Both the position numbers and the translations under genes were made by a program. From NCBI GenBank assembly GCA_030710605.1, contig CP092874.1, forward strand, positions 18,495,691-18,559,690: a stretch of 64,000 nt of DNA, given 5' to 3'. The stretch is from Cordylochernes scorpioides. Lineage: Eukaryota > Arthropoda > Arachnida > Pseudoscorpiones > Chernetidae. Below the pieces are notes generated by a model that did no database searches, was not told the origin of the DNA, and saw only the letters and a program-made list of their open reading frames with translations. Below, piece after piece: positions 52,310 to 52,351 of the stretch (position 1 is the stretch's first letter; each line of letters opens with the position of its first letter).

Positions 52310-52351
52310 ACCACGGACGCGTTTCGGGCTGTTGGCCCTCATCAGCGTGGT
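52310..52351 (-). ncRNA. Hammerhead ribozyme, type I, complete core
   Basis: Minus strand: stem I ACCACG pairs with CGTGGT; core CTGATGA at 52345-52339; stem II GGGC-CAACA-GCCC; GAAA at 52325-52322; helix III is the self-complementary ACGCGU; the cleavage site is GUC, between 52316 and 52315. Every invariant core base of the hammerhead is present. The minimal helix III with no real loop is like those of hammerheads in Penelope-like elements, which tend to act as dimers. The repeat continues with TTTTCTTGATTAATCAAG. Confidence 0.85.

What the first reader, a model, noticed from the sequence alone, without database searches (positions are those of the whole stretch)
52310..52351. Intact type I hammerhead ribozyme in a dispersed repeat
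Minus strand has CTGATGA, GAAA, paired stem I (ACCACG/CGTGGT), paired stem II (GGGC/GCCC) and a GUC cleavage triplet. All invariant core bases are seen. Helix III is only the palindrome ACGCGU, so cleavage may need two strands or dimer formation. If transcribed with the repeat it should self-cut.
Basis: partly seen in the sequence, partly recalled or inferred. Interest (0 to 1): 0.88.

Follow-up and report, generated by a model that had tools for sequence, protein, structure and literature searches.

The report
Hammerhead retrozyme carrying Penelope insertion footprint
The sequence is a self-cutting-RNA motif inside a very abundant, parasitic repeat of an animal genome, and the way its copies sit in the chromosomes points to Penelope-type retrotransposons as the machinery that spreads it.

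Summary
The hammerhead is real. On the minus strand, 52296-52361 has every core base, a long stem I with an internal loop, stem II, and a one-pair helix III closed by palindromic CGCG, as in amphibian hammerheads. Rfam HH9 finds it at E 1e-4 in a 301-base scan, below gathering. Thirteen diverged relatives keep the fold, partly by compensatory change. The exact 30-base core occurs 9,777 times in this 2.6-Gb genome. It lies in a 338-bp, non-coding, head-to-tail unit: a metazoan retrozyme. The window copy is a partial unit (52188-52365) between perfect 15-bp target duplications.

The more interesting result is the insertion footprint. 139 of 154 mapped arms end 3' at one of two internal sites about 50 nt apart, A and B. 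Of 48 distinct head-to-head pairs, 41 have one A and one B end, 1 has two A, 6 are unresolved; they are flanked by duplications and both arms carry the same variants. This matches the published signature of Penelope-like elements, which abound here and look alike. Reviews leave the mobiliser of metazoan retrozymes open, with PLEs as candidates. Cleavage, circular RNA and expression are untested. 5' ends show no peak at the cut, and the retrozyme and PLE tails are not significantly similar.

The parts
52188..52365 (-). partial retrozyme unit (q1-q178 of the 338-bp unit)
   Evidence: 97.8% to the L045 unit over q1-178
52296..52361 (-). type I hammerhead ribozyme, Rfam HH9 match
   Evidence: 26.5 bits, E 1.1e-4 in 301 bases, below gathering; covariation
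52315..52316 (-). predicted cleavage site (after C17 = 52316, q50|q51)
   Evidence: sequence; hammerhead rule recalled
52317..52322 (-). helix III: A-U pair capped by palindromic CGCG (ACGCGU); could in principle form 6 bp between two strands
   Evidence: sequence; amphibian precedent PMC7229834; not favoured by the energy model
52172..52186 (.). target site duplication GCCTGCTACTGAGTA, copy 1
   Evidence: sequence; one extra base (52187) lies between it and the unit
52366..52380 (.). target site duplication GCCTGCTACTGAGTA, copy 2
   Evidence: sequence
22726..22863 (-). diverged retrozyme fragment, q66-q203
   Evidence: 81%, 7e-33
23481..23726 (-). second hammerhead family; its 3' tail aligns with the Penelope tail
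   Evidence: score 53, 0 of 2000 shuffles as high (max 44)
43876..44011 (+). decayed hammerhead relative
43092..43209 (+). diverged retrozyme fragment, q96-q207
   Evidence: 80%, 1e-22
21022..21372 (+). ORF read by eye as the GIY-YIG domain of a Penelope-like element (no Pfam hit)
51703..51787 (.). small head-to-head Penelope pLTR insertion: left arm ends at tail end B, right arm at end A
40044..40304 (.). head-to-head Penelope pLTR pair, one arm with tail

Best explanation
It is a fragment of a non-autonomous metazoan retrozyme: a 338-nt non-coding unit with a newt-type type I hammerhead. Proposed cycle: tandem copies are transcribed; the hammerhead, perhaps as dimers, cuts the RNA to unit length and host ligase closes it to circles (inferred, from published retrozymes). 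A Penelope-like protein then cuts AT-rich DNA in a staggered way and uses both 3' ends to prime reverse transcription inside the RNA, one at site A (q~197-210), the other at site B (q~243-259), running round the template for up to several laps. The two cDNAs are joined head to head, giving inverted arms with 3' ends outward and a target duplication of about 10-15 bp (shown as a footprint; the enzyme is inferred). The window copy is a one-armed insertion starting at q178.
For: Ribozyme. Unit and tandem arrays: (up to 1,911 nt, L070); longest ORF 44 aa, GC 41%. Footprint: of 154 arms in 96 loci 85 end at A, 54 at B, 15 elsewhere (the two zones were set after seeing the ends). 50 head-to-head pair rows = 48 distinct insertions (L119 counted twice, L064 a duplicate of L063): 41 A/B, 1 A/A, 0 B/B, 6 unresolved; 41 of 42 has P about 1e-11 against independent choice. 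Sample not asking for a ribozyme: 20 A/B, 1 A/A, 0 B/B, 0 inward on C1 up to 62.2 Mb; 5 of the 20 and the A/A case are loci already counted, and two of the 20 have the same spacing (568) and may be one duplicated insertion. Both arms share variants: discordance 23/565 against 31,718/112,694 between loci; 0 of 2000 re-pairings as low. Target duplications: mean common stretch 10.2 nt against 6.5 re-paired, highest 7.2 of 200. Penelope: two internal RT start sites, tail on one inverted pLTR, both strands cut and extended, AT-rich targets (PMC11167929; PMC3846280). In this genome Penelope ORF places form 11 outward, 0 inward, 2 same-strand neighbours in 150 listed; by my reading 7 of 8 pLTR pairs have one short and one long 3' end, while the script's own labels called only 1 of 8 A/B.
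Against: No transcription, cleavage or circle was observed. 5' ends show no excess at the cut: 3 of 153 within 3 nt, 3.17 expected, so the genome gives no direct sign of cutting; uncut multimeric RNA would fit as well as circles. 55 arms are single, 39 A, 10 B, 6 other, so two-ended insertion is about half of the cases. The retrozyme and Penelope tails are not significantly similar (24 against shuffle mean 24.7; 1,151 of 2,000 as high), so a shared recognition signal is not shown. The window copy itself ends at q178, neither A nor B.
Confidence: 0.7

Rival explanations
1. The 338-bp unit is the pseudo-LTR of an autonomous Penelope-like element that has an ORF elsewhere, not an independent retrozyme.
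For: Same insertion footprint; PLE pLTRs carry hammerheads (PMC7761336, passage); a 2024 review proposes that retrozymes arose by reduction of PLEs (PMC11722881, passage).
Against: 52 of 154 arms are longer than one unit and run unit to unit with no ORF between (span differences at most 36 nt). Two PLE stretches looked at have no match to the unit above chance. Only those two were read, so other PLE families remain possible.
Confidence: 0.15
2. LINE-type mobilisation: head-to-head arms arise by ordinary twin priming, and A and B are just favoured sites.
For: Twin priming also gives inversions; target duplications of 10-15 bp fit LINEs (recalled).
Against: Both arms end at fixed sites, one of each in 41 of 42 resolved pairs; LINE inversions have one 3' end and a scattered second one (recalled). 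PLEs in the same genome are arranged likewise.
Confidence: 0.08
3. The ribozyme is an idle passenger: the repeats are spread by PLE or other machinery from uncut RNA, and the motif has no part.
For: Ribozyme cutting is not needed for PLE insertion in vitro (PMC11167929). No excess of 5' ends at the cut. 9,777 exact of 29,720 cores within 3 mismatches, so two thirds have changed. The computed fold prefers a mispaired core.
Against: Fold kept by paired changes across old families; published retrozymes of the same make-up do cut and circularise (PMC7229834).
Confidence: 0.2

Closest known systems
Metazoan non-LTR retrozymes (Cervera and de la Pena 2020, PMC7229834; parts 1-3 of 6 and passages read)
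   Same: Type I hammerhead in a 170-400 nt, AT-rich, non-coding tandem unit, thousands of copies, target duplications
   Different: Here about half of the sampled insertions are head-to-head pairs with two fixed 3' ends; the paper describes no such footprint in what I read ('inverted' occurs 0 times) and leaves the mobiliser open
Axolotl/newt hammerheads (HHR_Amex1, same paper, part 3)
   Same: Helix III of one pair capped by a palindromic tetraloop; there active mainly as dimers
   Different: Another unit; activity here untested
Penelope-like elements: Poseidon of Anolis (PMC11167929, parts 1-2 of 4 read) and Penelope of Adineta (PMC3846280, passages read)
   Same: Two adjacent internal RT starts, optional tail on one inverted arm, head-to-head arms, AT-rich targets, 8-10 bp target duplications
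   Different: Those encode RT and GIY-YIG endonuclease; this unit encodes nothing, and its tail is not significantly similar to the PLE tail of this genome

Membership tests
Type I hammerhead ribozyme | CUGANGA, GAAA, A15.1/U16.1 and NUH cleavage triplet around three helices, open at stem I | tested here: met
   bases by sequence; stems I and II by fold and covariation; helix III is one pair, kept in 13 of 14 rows but not formed in the MFE
Type I hammerhead ribozyme | Rfam gathering score | tested here: not met
   HH9 26.5 bits against 52
Type I hammerhead ribozyme | self-cleavage | not testable with these tools
   needs transcription assay
Metazoan non-LTR retrozyme | type I hammerhead in short tandem non-coding unit of 170-400 nt, low GC | tested here: met
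   338 bp, 41% GC, longest ORF 44 aa
Metazoan non-LTR retrozyme | target duplications longer than 4 bp | tested here: met
   15 bp in the window
Metazoan non-LTR retrozyme | circular RNA | not testable with these tools
   no RNA data
Penelope-like element | ORF with RT and GIY-YIG endonuclease | tested here: not met
   no ORF over 44 aa in the unit
Penelope-like element | two 3' ends (tail) and head-to-head inverted arms | tested here: met
Penelope-like element | tail sequence homologous to that of PLEs in this genome | tested here: not met
   not significant; one copy of a sister hammerhead family in the window does match

The most novel reading that the evidence does not exclude
Penelope proteins integrate circular hammerhead RNA in trans by a concerted two-ended reaction: one DNA end is extended from site A and the other from site B of the same RNA, so that each insertion records a circle read for a variable number of laps. 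The retrozyme would then be the SINE-like parasite of PLEs, and the ribozyme's job would be to make the circle.
Probability: 0.45. Interest if true: 0.8.

Novelty: new variant of a known kind. Interest (0 to 1): 0.62.

Why it matters
[quoted passage not shown] Here 41 of 42 resolved head-to-head pairs carry a footprint that a PLE study calls unique to PLEs (PMC11167929, abstract). It would also give PLE integration a large natural data set: thousands of insertions in which the pairing of two start sites can be counted. I found no description of this footprint on retrozymes in the searches (open-licence PMC only; listings, and passages or parts of six papers), which does not prove that none exists.

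Tried and rejected
Motif search alone: not informative, 1.3 hits expected by chance. MFE z-score: weak. Two-strand fold: I first took -43.4 against 2 x -18.8 as support for dimers through ACGCGU; on re-reading, that structure does not contain the ACGCGU helix, and a dimer that does evaluates to -32.6, so the claim is withdrawn. Enrichment of 5' ends at the ribozyme cut, which would have been genomic proof of cleavage: absent. Similarity of retrozyme and PLE tails: a shared ATGCC-T5 stretch looked convincing by eye but failed the shuffle test. Hidden very short partner arms of single-arm copies: 7 of 48 against 3 of 48 for the control end, not convincing. Conservation of the core against the next segment: not interpretable, because a sister family resembles the second segment and its exact count did not complete. 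Identifying the animal: chromosome-end reads gave no clear telomere repeat and a hemocyanin-family search did not complete; host left open. A type II hammerhead-like reading near 23020-23065 was dropped by eye: no room for stem I.

Rows dropped: before, 14 loci that repeat a place or a larger duplication, L004-L008 (same places as L009-L013) and L046-L050 (chromosome ends); arms under 86% identity or 30 nt; for variants, arms under 90% and 12 nt at each arm end. Loci were chosen for a near-intact or exact ribozyme segment; the sample was not, and it used the 100 A places and 49 of the 100 B places listed. In one search, 5 of 18 relatives (L015, L052, L075, L084, L097; chimeric or damaged) were left out of the alignment, which holds the other 13 and the window copy. 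About 40 further places were listed but not fetched.

Full report
The motif. On the minus strand the window reads UACAGCUUGCACCACG-CUGAUGA-GGGC-CAACA-GCCC-GAAA-CGCGUC-CGUGGUUAGCU at 52361-52305. The core bases are complete, stem I is ACCACG/CGUGGU extended by AGCU/AGCU across a UGC/U internal loop, and helix III is a single A-U pair capped by CGCG. [quoted passage not shown] My folds do not add to this: the MFE (-18.8) pairs core GAUG with CGUC, the centroid shows stems I and II with an open core, the best two-strand fold swaps stems and has no ACGCGU helix, and a dimer that has it scores worse, -32.6 against -43.4. Rfam HH9 matches at 26.5 bits (E 1.1e-4 for 301 bases), under its gathering score of 52; the whole-window scan at E<=1 did not list it.

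More than chance. The loose pattern is expected 1.3 times per window, so the pattern alone proves nothing. The window copy and 13 diverged relatives from the window and fetched loci keep 85.7% of 210 pair cells; shuffles give 78.7% (0 of 500 as high), slid structures 29-40%; 8 of 15 pairs have changes on both sides (6 of 500 shuffles as high), e.g. GC to CG in stem II in 4 sequences. The structure came from one of these rows and the rows are related, which favours it. The exact 30-base core occurs 4,936 + 4,841 = 9,777 times in G000, reversed control 0; within 3 mismatches 29,720 times.

The repeat. A 271-base query gave 47 matches from 40 scored of 1,306 first-look candidates. Elsewhere the window's 178 bases are part of a 338-bp unit that repeats head to tail, e.g. 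L045 = q215-338, three whole units, q1-253, and L070 with 1,911 nt in one run. The unit has 41% GC and no ORF over 44 aa. The window copy is q1-178 between two perfect copies of GCCTGCTACTGAGTA (52172-52186, 52366-52380), and lies in a larger duplication: L002 and L003 on the same contig have nearly the same flanks.

The footprint. I mapped the ends of 154 arms in the 96 loci left after removing duplicates. 85 3' ends fall at A (q195-211), 54 at B (q243-260) and 15 elsewhere; the zones were drawn after seeing the ends. The one end near the ribozyme cut, q48 in L031, is the edge of the fetched stretch. Most A and B ends are followed by A/T-rich target, often (AT)n. 5' ends are spread over the whole unit; 41 of 153 lie in q313-338 or q1-26, around a hairpin just upstream of the ribozyme. 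Ninety-nine arms form 50 head-to-head pair rows, 55 arms are single (39 A, 10 B, 6 other), one pair is tail to tail. One search shows that L119 was counted twice and that L064 repeats the insertion of L063, which leaves 48 distinct pairs: 41 with one A and one B end, 1 with two A, none with two B, 6 with an end that is neither or is broken up. If ends were chosen independently, 41 of 42 has P about 1e-11.

These loci had been chosen for a near-intact ribozyme, so I counted A and B ends directly by pattern: 4,794 A ends followed by eight A/T and 2,973 B ends. Among the first 100 A and first 49 B places on C1 (up to 62.2 Mb), outward neighbours within 2 kb are 20 A/B, 1 A/A, 0 B/B; there are no inward ones and one same-strand A/A. 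By comparison of places, 5 of the 20 and the A/A case (L083) are loci already in the first set; two others have identical spacing (568) and may be one duplicated insertion.

One event, one template. The two outer flanks of a pair share on average 10.2 nt against 6.5 when flanks are re-paired (highest mean of 200: 7.2), e.g. CAGAGAGGAATACTA in L100 and ATTTTAAACTCT in L041; many others are (AT)n and say little. At 13 informative sites outside the A and B zones the two arms of a pair differ in 23 of 565 comparisons, laps of one arm in 20 of 482, different loci in 31,718 of 112,694; none of 2,000 re-pairings was as low. Fully concordant were 24 of 43 insertions and 29 of 41 multi-lap arms; the rest carry some differences, which may be later mutation or template mixture. 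So both arms come from one RNA type in one event. A circle is the simplest template, since 52 of 154 arms are longer than the unit; an uncut multimer is not excluded, because a homogeneous array would give the same result.

What made it. Frangieh et al. 2024 (PMC11167929, parts 1-2 of 4 read) show that a Penelope-like protein cuts and extends both strands of AT-rich DNA and starts reverse transcription at two adjacent internal RNA sites, which explains the 30-40 bp tail of genomic copies. They saw no difference in start site between the two strands, which does not by itself predict the one-A-one-B rule. Arkhipova et al. [quoted passage not shown] Our A-to-B stretch, present on one arm only, is the same signature on a non-coding hammerhead unit. 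In this genome a GIY-YIG-like ORF of the window (21022-21372; read by eye, no Pfam hit) has 35,619 first-look candidates; the 150 listed places form 11 outward, 0 inward and 2 same-strand neighbours within 6 kb. Of 8 pLTR pairs in window and loci, 7 by my reading have one short and one long 3' end, the eighth not; the script's labels gave 1 A/B, 4 B/other, 2 A/other, 1 other/other, because A ends run on into A/T target.

Against it. The retrozyme and PLE tails are not significantly alike (24 against a shuffle mean of 24.7). A sister hammerhead family at 23481-23726 does align with the PLE tail (53 against shuffle maximum 44, 0 of 2,000), but other copies of that family have a different tail, so this copy may be a chimera. 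5' ends show no peak at the cut (3 of 153 within 3 nt, 3.17 expected), so the genome does not show cleavage. The published PLE ribozyme was not needed for insertion in vitro. The window copy and L009/L010 end at q178, a third site that I cannot place.

Verdict. The ribozyme is a new member of a known kind. The combination, a retrozyme with the PLE two-site footprint, is a new variant and bears on an acknowledged gap: which machinery moves animal retrozymes (PMC7229834 and PMC7761336, passages). Shown: motif, fold conservation of stems I and II, unit, two fixed 3' ends, A/B pairing, target duplications, shared variants. Inferred: cleavage, dimers, circles, PLE as the enzyme.

Noticed in passing
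window 12300-13382 and 56779-57816 (+): Two nearly identical Tc1/mariner-like transposase ORFs (Pfam run on the first only); 123-bp tandem arrays lie at 54942-55803 and 58165-58756 on either side of the second one, and at 4571-4939 and 40344-41048.
   Followed up: no
window 14166-18859 (-): Ty3/gypsy-like gag and pol ORFs; RT, RNase H, integrase zinc finger and protease found by Pfam in 14979-17834, the rest by eye.
   Followed up: no
window 5191-5332 and 8814-8955: The same 35-bp x 4 array occurs twice, 3.6 kb apart, in the same orientation.
   Followed up: no
window 23020-23065 and 52690-52740: By eye, a mobile-element-like repeat holds GGCGAAACC...GGGTTCACCACTGATGAGCC, which looks like pieces of a permuted hammerhead core but leaves no room for stem I.
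   Followed up: partly
L009, L010: Insertion of 336-337 nt running from q183-184 round to q178: almost exactly one lap of a 338-nt circle, with the same 3' end as the window copy.
   Followed up: no
window 23481-23726 (-); L055, L060, L066, L106: A second hammerhead family with its own A end (ATATGCCATTTTTAAT) and a B-like tail ending TTTTTCAT before (AT)n in several copies; the window copy has a Penelope-like tail instead.
   Followed up: partly
window 61534-61606 (-): tRNA-like sequence, 49.8 bits, in a repeat-rich stretch; gene or SINE head not decided.
   Followed up: no
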